From contig JAUJNT010000002.1 in the NCBI GenBank assembly GCA_030448005.1, positions 686,759 through 734,351 on the forward strand: DNA of 47,593 nucleotides. Direction: 5' to 3'. The notes below the pieces were generated by a model, which was not told the DNA's origin, ran no database searches, and saw nothing but the letters and a program-made list of their open reading frames with translations. This stretch comes from Thermoleophilaceae bacterium (GTDB lineage: Bacteria; Actinomycetota; Thermoleophilia; Solirubrobacterales; Thermoleophilaceae). Shown here piece after piece: positions 16,433 to 22,483 of the stretch; within the stretch, counting starts at the first letter, position 1, and every line of letters begins with the position of its first letter. Position numbers and translations under genes: made by a program.

Positions 16433-18766
16433 ATGGGGGAGGGCCACATCCGAGCGCAGGGCACCGCCGGAGCGCTCGAAGTCTGGGCGGCGCGCGCCTG
16501 GAACCTCTTCAACGAGGGCAAGCCCTTCTCGATCGTCTTCCCGGTCATGGTCCTGCTCGCCGCCGCGCTCGTGGGTCTCGCCCCTGATGGCAACCTCGCC
16601 GTGGCGCTCGCGGGCACCGCGGGGCTCGCTTCCGTGCTCTCGCGCTTCGCATTTCCGCTGCGGGGGAGGGCGCTGCTCTGGCTCGCTGGCGCCGCATCGG
16701 TGCCGCTGCTCGAGCCGTGGCGGGCGCCGGCGTTGCTGCTGGGAGCCCTCGCCGGCTATGCGTTCTTCACCGTCCTCTTCTGGGGCACGCTCTACTACCG
16801 CCTGAGGACTGGGGCTCCCTGGACGAACTTCACGCGCTTCTGGCGCCTCGTGCTCACCAACTCGGACCCCACGAGCGGCAACGCGTTGGAGCAGGTGCCA
16901 AAGCTCCTTATGAGCCTCGCCGCCGGCGTGCTCCTGGCCGAGCAGCCCACGCCATCGACTGGCCTGCGCATTGCCGTGGCCGCGCTGCTCGCGAGCGCCC
17001 TCGGCGCGCTGGCCTGGCGCCGCTTTGCCCGTGGTCGCCTGCCGGCGTACCCGAGCCGCCCCAGCGGCCGAACGGCTCCGCCCGCCGCTCGGGCCGGGCG
17101 GGTGTATGTGATCGTGGTCGATGGCTGCAACCGCAGCCGGCTGTGGCAGGCCGACACGCCGGTGATTGACCGCCTGGCCCGGGAGGGCACGGAGTACCTG
17201 GCGGTCGAGCCCGCCTACCCGGCCCGCACCGTCGTCTGCTTCTCCTCGATGCTCACCGGCGCAGCGCCGCAGGAGCACGGCATGCGCTCCAACTTCGCGC
17301 CCCGCCTCGGCGTGCGGTGCGAGTCGGTCTTCGATGTGCTCGAGCGCCACGGCAAGCGCGGCCGGCTCGTGGGCATCGCCCATCTGCTCGACCCGTTTGG
17401 CGAGGAGGTGGTGCGCTCGGTCACCTCGGTGCAGCCCACCGCCCAGATCGACCTGTCGCTGGCCGCCGCGGGACGCCGTGTGGTGGAGGAGGAGGATCCG
17501 GATCTGCTCGTCTTGCAGCTGCTGGCCGCGGACCAGCTCGGCCACGTACGCGGTGTACGCAATCCGGAGTACCTCGACCAGCTCGCGGAGACAGACCGGC
17601 GGATCGGCGACTTCCTCGCCTTTCTCGCCGAGCGTGGCAAGCTCGATACCAAGGGGGGCGCAGGCGATGCCACGGTGATCCTGATGGCCGACCACGGCCA
17701 GGGGCGCGGGATCGGCGGCCACGGCCATCTCGACTGGGGCGAGCGCCCCGTGCCGTTCGTGGTGTGGGGAAAGGGAGCGGTGCCCGGAGCCACGAGCCAC
17801 GAGCCGCGCTCTGTGTGCGAGCTGGCCGCCACGGTGTCGGAGCTGCTGGGAGTCGAGGCCCCGGCGGGCGCCCGCGGCCGTGCGCTCGTGCCCGTCACGG
17901 ACTCGGGGGTCACCGCAGCTCCCGCGCGCGGGCGCTGCCTCGCGATCGTGGTGGCCAGGGACGAGGAGCCTCGCCTCGGTCCGGTGCTCGAGCGGCTGCC
18001 CGGGCAGGCGTGTGGCATGCCGGTCGACGTGGTGGTGGTGGACGACGGCTCGCGTGACCGGACGGTAGATGTTGCGCTGACGGCGGGGGCGGAGGTGGTC
18101 TCACACGGCTCATCACGCGGGCTTGGCGCGGCCCTCCGGAGCGGGCTCGACCATGCCCGCCGGCGGGATTACGCCGCCGCCGTGTACCTCGACGGCGACG
18201 GCGAGTACGACTCGGCGGAGCTGGCGACGGTGCTGGAGCCGATCGCCCGCAGACGGGCGCACTATGTCCTGGGGTCCCGCTTTCTCGGTGCGCGTGAGGG
18301 GATGCGCTGGCACCGCACCCTCGCCAACCGCCTTACCTCGGCGCTGCTCGGCACGCTCATGGGCGCCGTCATGAGCGACGGGCAGACCGGCTACCGCGCC
18401 TTCTCGCGCCACGCGATTCACGTGGCCCGGATCCGGCACGACTACAACTACGCCCAGGTGCTGACGCTCTCGCTGTGGGGCGCCGGCATCGAGCCGGTGG
18501 AGGTCCCCATCTCCTACCGCCGCCGGGCCGGTGGCCGCTCCTTCGTGCGCTACCCGGAGTACCTGGTTCGCGTGGCACCGGCCCTCTGGCGCCAGTGGCG
18601 CGACTCGAGGAGCGCCAGGAGGAGCAGCGCGCACCCGAGCGCTCCGGCGGCCACGTACGGCCAGGGCGAGTCCCCGAAGAACGGGAATGCGCCGGTCAGC
18701 GGTCCGAAGGGGGCGTCGGGTCGCGGGGTGACGAGCCCGCCGGCTCCCAGCCGGACGTCCCCGTAG
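16433..18766 (+). CDS. Membrane-anchored phosphodiesterase fused to GT2 glycosyltransferase
   Basis: 777 residues. Residues about 29-203 are hydrophobic membrane segments. Residues about 222-485 are an alkaline-phosphatase-superfamily phosphodiesterase: Asp230 (VIVVDGCN), nucleophile Thr266 (YPARTVVCFSSMLTG), Asp367/His371 (ADQLGHVRG), Asp420-His421 (MADHGQG) and His430/His432 (GGHGHLDW), so all metal positions are filled. Residues about 500-723 are a GT2 domain of the dolichyl/undecaprenyl-phosphate sugar transferase type: VVVDDGSRDRT (Asp537/538), YLDGDGEYDS (Asp587, Asp589), SDGQTGYRAFSR. The last about 55 residues are low complexity and antisense to the convergent membrane protein gene. 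A lipid-linked sugar or envelope-polymer role is inferred; this domain combination is not one I know. Confidence 0.85.
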   Translation: MGEGHIRAQGTAGALEVWAARAWNLFNEGKPFSIVFPVMVLLAAALVGLAPDGNLAVALAGTAGLASVLSRFAFPLRGRALLWLAGAASVPLLEPWRAPALLLGALAGYAFFTVLFWGTLYYRLRTGAPWTNFTRFWRLVLTNSDPTSGNALEQVPKLLMSLAAGVLLAEQPTPSTGLRIAVAALLASALGALAWRRFARGRLPAYPSRPSGRTAPPAARAGRVYVIVVDGCNRSRLWQADTPVIDRLAREGTEYLAVEPAYPARTVVCFSSMLTGAAPQEHGMRSNFAPRLGVRCESVFDVLERHGKRGRLVGIAHLLDPFGEEVVRSVTSVQPTAQIDLSLAAAGRRVVEEEDPDLLVLQLLAADQLGHVRGVRNPEYLDQLAETDRRIGDFLAFLAERGKLDTKGGAGDATVILMADHGQGRGIGGHGHLDWGERPVPFVVWGKGAVPGATSHEPRSVCELAATVSELLGVEAPAGARGRALVPVTDSGVTAAPARGRCLAIVVARDEEPRLGPVLERLPGQACGMPVDVVVVDDGSRDRTVDVALTAGAEVVSHGSSRGLGAALRSGLDHARRRDYAAAVYLDGDGEYDSAELATVLEPIARRRAHYVLGSRFLGAREGMRWHRTLANRLTSALLGTLMGAVMSDGQTGYRAFSRHAIHVARIRHDYNYAQVLTLSLWGAGIEPVEVPISYRRRAGGRSFVRYPEYLVRVAPALWRQWRDSRSARRSSAHPSAPAATYGQGESPKNGNAPVSGPKGASGRGVTSPPAPSRTSP

Positions 18767-19938
18767 AGCCAGACCGACGCGGCCACGGTGATCGCCGCCA
18801 GCACGCTTCCGGTGCGCGGCAGGTGGCGCAGTCCCCACGCCGCCAGGGGCACGGCCATGGGAAGGGCCGCCAAGAGGTGGCGCGGTGGAAACCAGAAGCC
18901 GAACATGGTGGGCGCCAGGAATGCGGCCACGAGCATCTGGGCGCCGAGCACGCCCGCGCAGATCAGGCCGACTCGCTCCCGCGAGCGCAGATCGGGCACC
19001 GCGCGGGCCAGGCCCTCGCGGCGTGAGCGGTAGAGCAGCCAGAGGCCGGCCAGGGCCAACAGCGTGAAGGGGGCCCAGCGCAGGAGCCCGTAATCGTGGT
19101 CGATCATCAGGGCGACGAGGCGGTAGGAGCGCTCGAGGTAGCCGCCCGGGAAGTCGGCGTCCGTGGCGGTCTGACCGGCCACGTCGGCGGCGTAGGGCGT
19201 CGGCCCGCCGTAGAGCGCCTCGTTGACTCCCACGTACAGCGCGAGGCTGAACCCGGCAAGCTCGGCCGAGCCGAGCGCGAGCGTGCGCCGCTGCGCGCGC
19301 AGCAACGAGCGGAGCGCAAAGGCGCCCACCACGACCCCCGCCGGCACGAACTTCGTGCCAAGCCAGGGGAGGGTGCCGAGCAGCGCGAAGCAGGCGAACG
19401 CATCGCGCCGGGACACCCGCTCGTCCAGGCGGATCGCAAGCAGCGCGGCCCCCGCGAGCGCGGCAGCTGCGGTCAGCTCGGGGTAGACCGCGCTGCCGTA
19501 CGCGAGAAAGGGAGGCGAGAGCCCGAAGGCCAGGGCCGCCCCGAGCGCCCAGGGATCGGGCACGGCCCGTAGTGCCAATAGGTACCCGAGAGCGCAGGCC
19601 AGCGCCCCGATCGCGGCGAGCAGCAACTCGACCGCGCGCGCACCGCCGAGGGCGTAGGCCGGGGCGATCAGCAGCGGGAAGCCCGCGCCGTGGGGCTCGT
19701 GGAGCCGGCCCTCCGTCTCGACGCCGTGCCGGTCGAGCTCGTACGGGTAGTAGGCCTCGTAGCTGCGCTCGGCGTACTGGTTCTCCACGTCCAGGTCGCC
19801 GTCCTCGACGATCGACCGGGCGCTCAGCAGGTAGTGGGGCTCGTCGCCGCCGTAGTCCGAATCGCCGAAGGCATCGAGGCCGAGGGTGGCCGAGTAGACG
19901 GCGACGAGGACCAGCCAGAGCAGGAAGGCCCGCCTCAC
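18550..19938 (-). CDS. Polytopic GT-C-like membrane glycosyltransferase
   Basis: 462 residues with about ten transmembrane helices. The first extracytoplasmic loop carries DSDYGGDEPHYLLSARSI; an acidic pair in this loop is the catalytic feature of GT-C enzymes (PMT, ArnT, mannosyltransferases), which use polyprenyl-phosphate sugars. The loop with FWFPPRHLLAALP is also seen in such proteins. It runs convergent with the phosphodiesterase-GT2 gene, whose GT2 domain could make the lipid-linked donor. The two reading frames overlap by 217 bases; the helix ALGCALLLLALLESRHW in this protein lies within the overlap, so the overlap is real for this gene. It is 9 bases below a collapsed acyl-CoA dehydrogenase gene. 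Confidence 0.8.
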   Translation of the reverse strand: MRRAFLLWLVLVAVYSATLGLDAFGDSDYGGDEPHYLLSARSIVEDGDLDVENQYAERSYEAYYPYELDRHGVETEGRLHEPHGAGFPLLIAPAYALGGARAVELLLAAIGALACALGYLLALRAVPDPWALGAALAFGLSPPFLAYGSAVYPELTAAAALAGAALLAIRLDERVSRRDAFACFALLGTLPWLGTKFVPAGVVVGAFALRSLLRAQRRTLALGSAELAGFSLALYVGVNEALYGGPTPYAADVAGQTATDADFPGGYLERSYRLVALMIDHDYGLLRWAPFTLLALAGLWLLYRSRREGLARAVPDLRSRERVGLICAGVLGAQMLVAAFLAPTMFGFWFPPRHLLAALPMAVPLAAWGLRHLPRTGSVLAAITVAASVWLYGDVRLGAGGLVTPRPDAPFGPLTGAFPFFGDSPWPYVAAGALGCALLLLALLESRHWRQRAGATRTRYSG

Positions 19939-19947
19939 CGCGGTCTC

Positions 19948-20184
19948 TCAGCAGCCGAGGTAGCGGGCGATCACCAGCTGCTGCACCTCGTCGGTGCCCT
20001 CACCGCCGTAATCCCAGTCGAAGTGCATCCCCATGAACCGGAGCTCGCCAAGCTTGGCCACGATCTCGTACGGAAAGCGGCCCTCGCGATCGAGCTCGCC
20101 CGCCCATCGGCCTGTCTCCCCGTCGGCGAACTCCCGCGCCACGCGGCGGATCGCCCGCTGCTCGTCGCTCAGCTGGAAGTCCAT
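19948..20184 (-). pseudogene. Acyl-CoA dehydrogenase with large internal deletion (78 residues)
   Basis: The first about 58 residues (MDFQLSDEQRAIRRVAREFA ... KLGELRFMGMHFDWDYGG) are a normal N-terminus of an acyl-CoA dehydrogenase of about 380 residues. The remaining residues EGTDEVQQLVIARYLGC match the extreme C-terminus of the same family (usually YEGT.EIQRLVIAR.L). About 300 residues, including all FAD-contact and catalytic regions, are missing, with the frame kept. The join falls at a YGG/YEG-like motif that occurs near both ends of full-length genes, which suggests deletion by short-homology recombination. Spacing to the genes on either side stays tight (6 and 9 bases). It cannot be a working dehydrogenase. 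Confidence 0.8.
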
Positions 20185-20190
20185 GCGGGG

Positions 20191-20394
20191 TCAGTCGACG
20201 CGGCGCTTGAAGACGATCACATGACCGTCCTTCTCGCGATGCAGGTTGACGTCGAGGAAGACGGTGGCGAGCTCCCACCCCTCGGCCCCCAGCCGCGAGA
20301 GCTCCTCCTGGAACTTCGTGCGGTCGAGCTCGTCGCTCTGGCGTCCCATGAAGCCGTGCGTGATCACTGTGGTGGTGTAGTCCCAGGTCGTCAT
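20191..20394 (-). CDS. DUF4177-type small protein
   Basis: 67 residues from ATG 20394 (MTTWDYTTTVITHGFMG). The pattern WDY..., a middle LSRLGAEGWELATVFLD and a final HVIVFKRR is that of the small DUF4177 family, whose members are short beta-rich proteins of unknown function. The longer open frame upstream is arginine-rich with no family features and is left out. It starts a tight run of three - strand genes with the collapsed dehydrogenase and the GT-C-like protein. Confidence 0.75.
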   Translation of the reverse strand: MTTWDYTTTVITHGFMGRQSDELDRTKFQEELSRLGAEGWELATVFLDVNLHREKDGHVIVFKRRVD

Positions 20395-20654
20395 ACGACC
20401 GGACCCTACTTGCAGCCACCGGCGGCGAAGCGGGCGACGACTCCGACGAAGAGCAGTGGCCGCGTCCGAATCGTTAGGCGGCTGTGAGTGCAGGTTCGGC
20501 AGCGGGAAGAGGCCTGTGAAGCGTCCAAGGCGGCGGCGCTTCCCTAGCTCTGAACGTTCGGACATCATCGATGACGAAGGCGTAACTTCCCTCGGGATCG
20601 CGCAGGCGCGCGCCGGCCAGGGGCGAGGGTCGCTCGGCTGATCACTCCCTGCGC

Positions 20655-21499
20655 ATGAGATGGGGATGCTTAGCGGTCAGCGACCCGAGGCAACTTCGCC
20701 CCGCACCGGGCGTCGGACTGCCGGCGCGCGTGTTCCGAAGCAGCCAGCCCGAGTTCGTGCCGGACGTGAGGATCGACAAGAACTTCGCGCGCGTGCCCGC
20801 CGCGGTCGAGGTCGGCCTCTCCGCCGCAGTTGCGCTTCCTCTGTGTGACGGAGACGAAGTCCGCGGGGTGATCGAGTTTCTCAGCCGCGGCGCACGCTAC
20901 CCCGAACCGGAGATAATGGAGATGATGGAGACGCTCACCGCACTGATCGGCCGGTTCTTCCCGATCGTCACAGAGCGCGAAGAGCTACGCGGAAAACTCG
21001 AGGGCTTTGCCCTGACGGATGAGCTCACCACGCTTGCAAACCGGCGCGCGTGGGAGCAAGGGCTGCAGCGCTAGCTCTCCCGCGCCGAACGCACGGGCCA
21101 GGGCCTGTGCGTAGCGCTCGTCGACCTCGACGACTTCAAGGGCTACAACGACGAACACGGTCACCCGGCGGTGACGCCCTGCTGCGTGACACGGCCGCCG
21201 CCTGGACCGCGTGCCTGCGACCAAGCGACCTGCTGGCCCGCCTCGGGGGAGATGAGTTCGCCGTCGCTCTTCCGGCTCAAACACTCGAGAGCGCGCGTTC
21301 AATGGTCGAGCGCCTCAGAACGGCCGCACCTCACCCGATGACCTGCTCGGCCGGTCTGACGACCTTGCGGCGGCCGGGAGAGACCGCCCGCCAAGTGATC
21401 TCGAGCACAGACAGAGCCCTCTATGAAGCCAAACGGACAGGGCGCGACAAGACCTTGGTCGCCGACGACCTGGCCGCTCTCCCGGCCGGCCCCACATAG
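20655..21499 (+). pseudogene. Broken GAF-GGDEF diguanylate cyclase
   Basis: Frame 20655 gives the end of a GAF domain (GVGLPARVFRSSQPEFVPDV ... VALPLCDGDEVRGVIEF) and the start of a GGDEF domain (LTDELTTLANRRAWEQGLQR), then an in-frame TAG at 21072-21074. The same frame continues with VALVDLDDFKGYNDEHGH until about 21170, where one missing G shifts it; the other frame resumes with GDALLRDTAAAW and LARLGGDEFAVAL, the GGDEF signature, through residues typical of the domain end (DRALYEAKRTGRDK). The first half of the GAF domain is also absent. A nonsense codon, a frameshift and 5' truncation together point to a real pseudogene of a c-di-GMP synthase. Confidence 0.85.
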
Positions 21500-21580
21500 G
21501 CAGGCAAAACTACCGGCGAGGTCGCACAACCGTCACGTTCGGAACTCTCCTGAGGGCCTGACCGCTCTAGCGTCGTTCCC

Positions 21581-22483
21581 GTGAGATGCGAGCGCGGGCA
21601 GGCGACGGTCGAGTGGGTCGGGCTGGTGCTGGTGGCCGCCCTGATCCTCGGAGGCGCGGCGGCGCTCGCGGGCCCCGACGTCGATGGCCGGTCGTTCGGC
21701 GGCTTCCTCGCTCACCGGATCGTGTGTGCCACGCGCGGAGGTTGCGACGATGGTGACACGGTGCTCGCAAAGGCCTACGGCCCGCGCGATGCAGATCTGC
21801 TGCGCCGCCACGCGCCGAACGTCGTCTACGAGCCGGGCGAGCGGCAGCTCCCGGTCGACTGGAAGGAGTGCCGTCAGCGCAGCTGCGCAGACGCCCCCGA
21901 TGACCGGGATCTCGACTCTCACCGTACGAACGCCGGGCGCCGCGCCACGGTCTACACACGGGTGGTGCGCCGTGGTCGGCGCACCTACCTTCAGTACTGG
22001 TTCTACTACCCGGACTCGAACTCCACCTTCGCCGGCTCCGACAAGCTTTGGAAGGGAAGCGTCCTGGCTCAGCTCGCGGGGCGGGCGGTGCGGGGAAGCT
22101 CACGTTATCCGGGCTTTCACCGCGACGACTGGGAGGGGTATCACGTGAGGATCGACCGGCGGGGGAGGGTCGCGGTGCGCTCCACCTCCCATGGCCATTA
22201 CCAGTGGTGCAAGCACAAGCGCTGCCGCAACCGTTGGGGACCGCCTACCGGCTGGACGCGCGTGTCGAGCGGGAGCCATGCCGGGCACATCCCGCTCGAC
22301 CGGCGCTCCCGTCCCCGTCTGCCAGGCCGCGACCTGCGCGAGCGCACGAGCACCTCTGACGGCCTACGTCTGCGACCGCTCGAGTCGGCCGGCAACCGTC
22401 GCGGCTACCGGCCACTCGAGAAGGGGATCAAGCCGCCGTGGCGCAAGGGGGCCTACCGCCATCCAGAGGACGACGAGTCTTGA
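21581..22483 (+). CDS. Prepilin-like secreted protein with Vps62/lectin-like domain
   Basis: 300 residues from GTG 21581. The N-terminus RGQATVEWVGLVLVAALILG has a G|QATVE site (Gly before cleavage, Glu at +5) and one hydrophobic helix, as in type IV/Flp prepilins and TadE-like pseudopilins. The rest is soluble with six or more cysteines (IVCATRGGCDD, KECRQRSCAD) and LQYWFYYPDSNSTFAG plus FHRDDWEGYHVRIDRRGRV, resembling the HDGDWE block of Vps62-type beta-sandwich proteins. It may be a cell-surface adhesin or pilus-linked protein; function not known. A deleted copy of its 3' end lies at 23652-23717. Confidence 0.7.
   Translation: MRCERGQATVEWVGLVLVAALILGGAAALAGPDVDGRSFGGFLAHRIVCATRGGCDDGDTVLAKAYGPRDADLLRRHAPNVVYEPGERQLPVDWKECRQRSCADAPDDRDLDSHRTNAGRRATVYTRVVRRGRRTYLQYWFYYPDSNSTFAGSDKLWKGSVLAQLAGRAVRGSSRYPGFHRDDWEGYHVRIDRRGRVAVRSTSHGHYQWCKHKRCRNRWGPPTGWTRVSSGSHAGHIPLDRRSRPRLPGRDLRERTSTSDGLRLRPLESAGNRRGYRPLEKGIKPPWRKGAYRHPEDDES

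What the first reader, a model, noticed from the sequence alone, without database searches (positions are those of the whole stretch)
19948..20184. Acyl-CoA dehydrogenase collapsed to its two ends
A 78-codon frame is the N-terminal about 58 residues of the family joined directly to its last about 18 residues, without frameshift and with operon spacing intact. The join sits at a YGGEGT sequence that mimics motifs at both ends of normal genes, suggesting deletion of about 900 bases by short homology. An in-frame survivor could still be made as a small polypeptide.
Basis: partly seen in the sequence, partly recalled or inferred. Interest (0 to 1): 0.5.

Follow-up and report, generated by a model that had tools for sequence, protein, structure and literature searches.

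The report
Decayed enzyme gene, middle deleted
A gene for an enzyme of the fatty-acid-breakdown type has lost about 900 bases from its middle in one bacterium, leaving a short open frame that is most likely a dead remnant; relatives keep the whole gene in the same place.

Summary
ORF 19948-20184 (-), 78 codons, is the first 61 codons of an acyl-CoA dehydrogenase joined in frame to its last 17. Intact orthologues lie upstream of the same GT-C-like gene in 11 of 15 relatives that have it, one in the same genus. The loss is 299 codons, 897 bp. The join shares a 5-base word (CGGYG) with both ends of most intact genes: consistent with short homology, not proof.

It looks like a real, not brand-new loss, not an assembly collapse: 6 of 20 invariant N-part residues are changed, against at most 1 of 20-21 in any intact gene, and omega is raised on this branch (0.16) but on none of 10 intact branches (at most 0.057). 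The genome holds no other close copy.

New here: 13 of 13 intact genes carry TANNNT 6-13 nt before the start (leaderless-type promoter). The remnant has none within 100 nt; a DUF4177 gene, best matched in another family, ends 6 nt upstream. Promoter loss followed by decay is the likely story. A small-polypeptide role is not excluded, but little supports it. Ordinary gene decay; low interest.

The parts
20002..20184 (-). N part of the remnant: first 61 codons of the acyl-CoA dehydrogenase, with the start codon at the position used by the intact orthologues
19948..20001 (-). C part of the remnant: last 17 codons (EGTDEVQQLVIARYLGC) plus stop; keeps the Glu of the GEGT motif
   Evidence: role of that Glu in relatives from PMC11153573 (passages)
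20001..20005 (-). Deletion junction; word CGGTG here, CGGCG at both ends of most intact orthologues
18550..19938 (-).
20191..20394 (-). DUF4177 gene ending 6 nt before the remnant's start codon; probably laterally moved
20403..20408 (-). TAGGGT, -10-like element 8 nt before the DUF4177 start
   Evidence: function inferred
20655..21505 (+). 5'-truncated GAF-GGDEF pseudogene (in-frame stop at 21072-21074, frameshift near 21170); intact 693-codon frame elsewhere in G007
21581..22483 (+). Uncharacterised gene whose relative lies directly upstream, divergent, of the intact dehydrogenase in three relatives

Best explanation
The ORF is a pseudogene remnant. An acyl-CoA dehydrogenase gene, ancestrally upstream of a GT-C-like gene and probably read from its own leaderless-type promoter, lost that promoter when a DUF4177 gene came to lie 6 nt before its start codon. 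Released from selection, it then lost 897 bp of its middle, probably by a slip between short shared words (CGGYG), and its N part has drifted. Shown: the intact syntenic orthologue, the size and place of the deletion, the missing promoter motif, the excess loss of invariant residues and raised omega. Inferred: the order of events, the slip mechanism, the lack of function.
For: Dehydrogenase match upstream of the same GT-C-like gene, same contig and strand, in 11 of 15 relatives that have that gene; 10 of the 11 were fetched and read as intact genes, and the eleventh (G021) has an open frame with the same C-terminus. 6 of 20 invariant N residues replaced against 6 of 266 pooled over 13 leave-one-out controls, Fisher P 4e-5, though columns and genes are not independent. 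With each branch length fixed to that of the neighbouring GT-C-like gene, omega is 0.16 on the remnant branch (2dlnL 20.0 over equality) and 0.005-0.057 on the 10 intact branches. TANNNT 6-13 nt before the start in 13 of 13 intact genes, 0.6% background, absent within 100 nt of the remnant. No other close copy in the genome, best 44%.
Against: The frame is still open, and the 17-residue C part has changed 0 of 11 invariant residues (N versus C, Fisher P 0.066). Omega stays significantly below 1, though that branch includes the time when the gene was whole. With the branch length left free the test does not resolve: 2dlnL was 3.5 (all 77 codons) and 4.2 (N part) with the length at its bound, and 0.85, where an intact gene (G017) gave 6.8.
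Confidence: 0.84

Rival explanations
1. Relay frame: the remnant has no protein function but is kept open because ribosomes leaving DUF4177 must cross it to reach the GT-C-like gene. In-frame deletions would survive, frameshifts would be polar.
For: DUF4177, remnant and GT-C-like gene are spaced 6 and 9 nt. No SD-like word in the 25 nt before the remnant, and no TANNNT in the 30 nt printed before the GT-C-like start (the latter by eye). GT-C-like omega on this branch equals background, 0.072 versus 0.075.
Against: Neutral simulations leave the frame stop-free in 38-63% of runs at 16-32 substitutions, indels not modelled, so an open frame needs no selection. A weak purine stretch (GAGAG) precedes the GT-C-like start. 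One species only.
Confidence: 0.1
2. Functional small polypeptide: the 78 residues make a helical peptide with a new role.
For: Open frame, start codon kept, C part conserved.
Against: Invariant N residues lost; the FAD- and substrate-binding middle is absent; no second short frame of this kind among the family and order matches listed, nor this join in 395 other genomes sampled from the phylum. The single-sequence fold (mean pLDDT 52) says nothing either way.
Confidence: 0.03
3. Assembly or consensus artefact that collapsed an intact gene.
For: The genome is a draft in 9 contigs; no reads were available here.
Against: A collapse would leave the N part as conserved as in relatives, and it is not. 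The promoter region differs as well. No near-identical whole or partial copy elsewhere in the held genome.
Confidence: 0.03

Closest known systems
Acyl-CoA dehydrogenase (PF02771 N-terminal domain; nearest NCBIfam model NF042972, below its cut-off)
   Same: First 61 and last 17 codons, start codon position and GEGT motif are those of the family.
   Different: The middle 299 codons, with the FAD- and substrate-binding parts, are gone; it should not work as an enzyme of this family (inference).
Internally deleted pseudogenes of bacterial genomes (general knowledge, recalled)
   Same: Internal deletion at a short shared word, drift of the remaining part, next to another broken gene.
   Different: The deletion happens to be in frame (one in three by chance) and the frame is still open.
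Leaderless genes with TANNNT promoters as mapped in Mycobacterium tuberculosis (PMC3898074, passages read)
   Same: TANNNT 6-13 nt before the start codon in 13 of 13 intact orthologues, no SD-like word in 11 of 13.
   Different: Inferred from sequence only; no start-site mapping. The remnant has lost the motif.

Membership tests
Acyl-CoA dehydrogenase family | N-terminal helical domain (PF02771) | tested here: met
   E 3.1e-15, 57 bits against cut-off 22.9, covering profile 1-71 of 113 only
Acyl-CoA dehydrogenase family | Middle beta domain and C-terminal helical domain, FAD and substrate binding | tested here: not met
   299 of 377 aligned codons absent relative to intact orthologues; no other acyl-CoA dehydrogenase domain reported
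Acyl-CoA dehydrogenase family | Catalytic Glu in the J-K loop (Glu376 of mature MCAD) | tested here: inconclusive
   Glu of GEGT is present; that it equals MCAD Glu376 rests on the motif, partly recalled, and on passages of PMC11153573
Pseudogene | Intact orthologue at the same place in relatives | tested here: met
   11 of 15 relatives with the GT-C-like gene, on the same contig and strand; 10 of the 11 fetched and read
Pseudogene | Relaxed selection | tested here: met
   6 of 20 invariant residues lost versus at most 1; omega 0.16 versus 0.005-0.057 on 10 intact branches with branch lengths fixed. With lengths free, unresolved
Pseudogene | No functional product | not testable with these tools
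   needs proteomics or removal of the gene
Leaderless gene (intact orthologues) | -10 element directly before the start codon, no SD | tested here: met
   13 of 13 with TANNNT at 6-13 nt; SD-like word in 2 of 13, at 13 and 17 nt. Sequence only, no mapped starts
Leaderless gene (the remnant) | -10 element directly before the start codon | tested here: not met
   no TANNNT within 100 nt

The most novel reading that the evidence does not exclude
The collapsed gene is kept open as a translational bridge: after a moved-in DUF4177 gene replaced the leaderless promoter, the shortened frame carries ribosomes from DUF4177 to a still-needed GT-C-like gene, so in-frame collapse was selected over any other loss.
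Probability: 0.1. Interest if true: 0.45.

Novelty: new member of a known kind. Interest (0 to 1): 0.17.

Why it matters
Mostly as a clean example of gene loss, placed by synteny: a moved gene replaces the promoter, the orphaned gene drifts, and an internal deletion follows at a short shared word. It also warns annotators that a small open frame with a good Pfam hit can be the two ends of a lost gene. The conserved TANNNT before the start codon suggests leaderless expression of this gene in the family, which is testable.

Tried and rejected
Tail as a continuation of the N-terminal domain instead of the C-terminus: rejected, 76-94% identity to the C-termini of the orthologue group against 30-45% over 14-20 residues to the continuation. 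An unguided multiple alignment did place the tail on the continuation, so that alignment was not used for folding.

Two different dehydrogenases fused: the best matches of the whole remnant are to the same orthologue group, but the two parts are short and on a long branch (0.52), so this is unlikely rather than excluded.

DUF4177-dehydrogenase as an ancestral operon: no support; none of 17 loci with DUF4177 matches from 16 other genomes (L114-L116, L162-L175; two from G216) shows the remnant or the GT-C-like gene beside it. These loci hold at most about 1.5 kb on each side and some reach a contig end.

Codon tests with free branch lengths: unresolved, as sites are saturated and some lengths ran to their bounds. 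With the remnant branch fixed at 2.0, 3.47 or 5.0, omega was 0.28, 0.16 and 0.11, each above background; the control on 10 intact branches was added on rechecking this report.

Single-sequence AlphaFold model: uninformative. Literature: a search on internally deleted acyl-CoA dehydrogenase genes listed 4 papers and one on deletion in pseudogenes listed 2; judged by titles and starts of abstracts only, none was on this point.

Full report
Observation. The ORF at 19948-20184 (-) is 78 codons long. Residues 6-76 match Acyl-CoA_dh_N at 3.1e-15. A search of its last 21 residues against the open frames of the loci fetched to that point put the best matches at the very C-terminus of intact dehydrogenases: 17 of 18 residues identical in four loci (two of them the same sequence), for example DAKILTIGEGTDEVQQLVIARALGC; the orthologue group ranges from 76% to 94%. 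So the frame is the two ends of one protein.

Relatives. In the family (31 genomes with the window's own), 29 have a match to the remnant at 1e-8 or better, to dehydrogenases of several kinds. The GT-C-like gene directly downstream has a relative in 15 other genomes. In 11 of those 15 a dehydrogenase match lies upstream on the same contig and strand: G007 (same genus), G018, G027, G025, G023, G024, G030, G028, G022, G021 and G014 (coordinates). In G015, G017 and G029 the two genes are on different contigs or the contig ends; in G019, 1.88 kb of contig upstream of the GT-C-like gene held no dehydrogenase match. I measured the gap for 10 of the 11 (G021 was not fetched): 7 overlap or are at most 75 nt apart, while G007, G018 and G022 have 680, 834 and 2241 nt (GT-C-like starts are the aligned starts). 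I read 13 intact orthologues, these 10 plus G020, G017 and G012 (G020 and G012 gave no GT-C-like match, and G017's is on another contig). Counted from the remnant's first column, 12 have 377 codons and G014 has 378; for G023 and G024 that column is one codon before their first ATG.

The deletion. 377 minus 78 is 299 codons, 897 bp, in frame. Codons read mostly TAC GGC GGC GGC GGC on the N side and ATC GGC GAG GGC ACC on the C side in intact genes, and TAC GGC GGT GAG GGC ACC here. At that junction the genes of G007, G020 and G018 share 5 bases; that of G012 shares 1. Among enumerated deletions of at least 700 bases in the G007 gene, 1.3% share 5 or more; among those of exactly 897 bases, 6.4%. 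For G020 the figures are 1.5% and 9.6%, for G018 1.2% and 6.4%. Short homology is plausible, not demonstrated.

Not an assembly collapse. 6 of 20 N-part residues invariant in the 13 intact genes are changed in the remnant. In leave-one-out controls no intact gene had more than 1 of 20-21; pooled 6 of 266. Mean identity of the remnant N part to the intact ones is 0.56, while each intact one averages 0.67-0.74 to the others. The C part shows 0 of 11 invariant changes; the contrast with the N part is not significant (P 0.066). A codon model with the remnant branch fixed at the length found for the neighbouring GT-C-like gene (3.47) gives omega 0.16 against 0.042 and rejects both equality (2dlnL 21.8) and omega 1 (105.5); fixed at 2.0 or 5.0 it gives 0.28 and 0.11. 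The same test on the 11 taxa that have both genes gives 0.161 for the remnant (2dlnL 20.0) and 0.005-0.057 for the 10 intact genes; the intact branches with the largest departures, G022 and G024 (2dlnL 6.8 and 6.6), depart downward. If omega went from 0.042 to 1 at the loss, about 12% of the branch would suffice (my arithmetic). With the branch length free the fit does not resolve. The species tree used has weak internal supports (31-46 at six nodes).

Absence elsewhere. The G007 intact protein finds no close copy in the window's genome besides the remnant; the best are paralogues of 44% and 43% identity. The degenerate junction pattern, with up to 2 mismatches, was found in 1 of 396 genomes sampled from the phylum, the window's own; that sample lists no other genome of the family. 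The family itself was covered by the protein search: the three other matches in frames under 200 aa lie within 465 bases of a contig start, toward which they run. In the order search 67 of 232 genomes matched at 1e-16, and apart from the remnant each match lies in an open frame of 227 aa or more. Collapsed genes with other joins, weaker matches or outside these groups would have been missed.

What happened upstream. In G027, G024 and G014 a gene related to window 21581-22483 lies within about 105 nt upstream and divergent of the dehydrogenase; in G025, G023 and G020 it lies about 1-3 kb away, and in the 5.8 kb upstream in G007 it gave no match. In the window 1.4 kb lies between: a DUF4177 gene and a broken GAF-GGDEF gene. 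The DUF4177 DNA is 87-92% identical over 175-234 bases to copies in another family of the order (G097, G103, G216, G217), against 85%, 77% and 74% in G005, G018 and G007; the longest similarity toward the remnant reaches 20188, three bases short of its start codon. This points to lateral movement of that gene. The GGDEF piece is 84% identical over about 819 bases to part of an intact 693-codon frame elsewhere in G007.

Promoter. All 13 intact dehydrogenase genes read have TANNNT 6-13 nt before the start codon; the rate is 0.6% in random 25-mers of the same loci and 3.2% in shuffled upstream DNA. An SD-like word appears in 2 of 13, at 13 and 17 nt. For G023 and G024 I used the first ATG as start. 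The remnant has no TANNNT within 100 nt upstream, while DUF4177 has TAGGGT 8 nt before its ATG. In M. tuberculosis TANNNT is the mapped -10 motif and leaderless transcripts are common (PMC3898074, passages). I infer that the intact gene is leaderless and that the moved-in segment removed its promoter. That promoter loss came first and deletion second is inference.

Could the survivor work? It keeps the Glu of GEGT, which by the family motif corresponds to the catalytic base between helices J and K (PMC11153573, passages; the correspondence is partly recalled), but lacks the middle of the protein. A single-sequence fold has mean pLDDT 52. At 16-32 neutral substitutions 38-63% of simulated frames remain stop-free, indels not modelled. 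The open frame is thus weak evidence. A relay role toward the GT-C-like gene, which remains under normal constraint, is the boldest reading not excluded.

Organism. One genome of the family (G029) has a dehydrogenase identical in DNA to that of Bacterium HR41, isolate HRbin41, and several of the top hits are Solirubrobacterales; an actinobacterium of that neighbourhood is likely, which is inference.

Noticed in passing
window 20655-21505: GAF-GGDEF gene, 5'-truncated with an in-frame stop and a frameshift; intact 693-codon frame elsewhere in the same-genus genome G007.
   Followed up: partly
window 20188-20427: DUF4177 gene more similar in DNA to copies in another family than to same-genus copies: probably a laterally moved single gene with its own -10-like element.
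   Followed up: partly
L133, L134, L136-L144, L146, L148, upstream of the dehydrogenase starts: TANNNT 6-13 nt before the start codon in 13 of 13 intact genes, no SD-like word in 11: leaderless expression seems conserved in this family.
   Followed up: yes
L133 6978-7657 and L134 2654-3487: In G007 and G018 extra DNA of 680 and 834 nt lies between the dehydrogenase and the GT-C-like gene, unlike the tight pair in seven other relatives.
   Followed up: no
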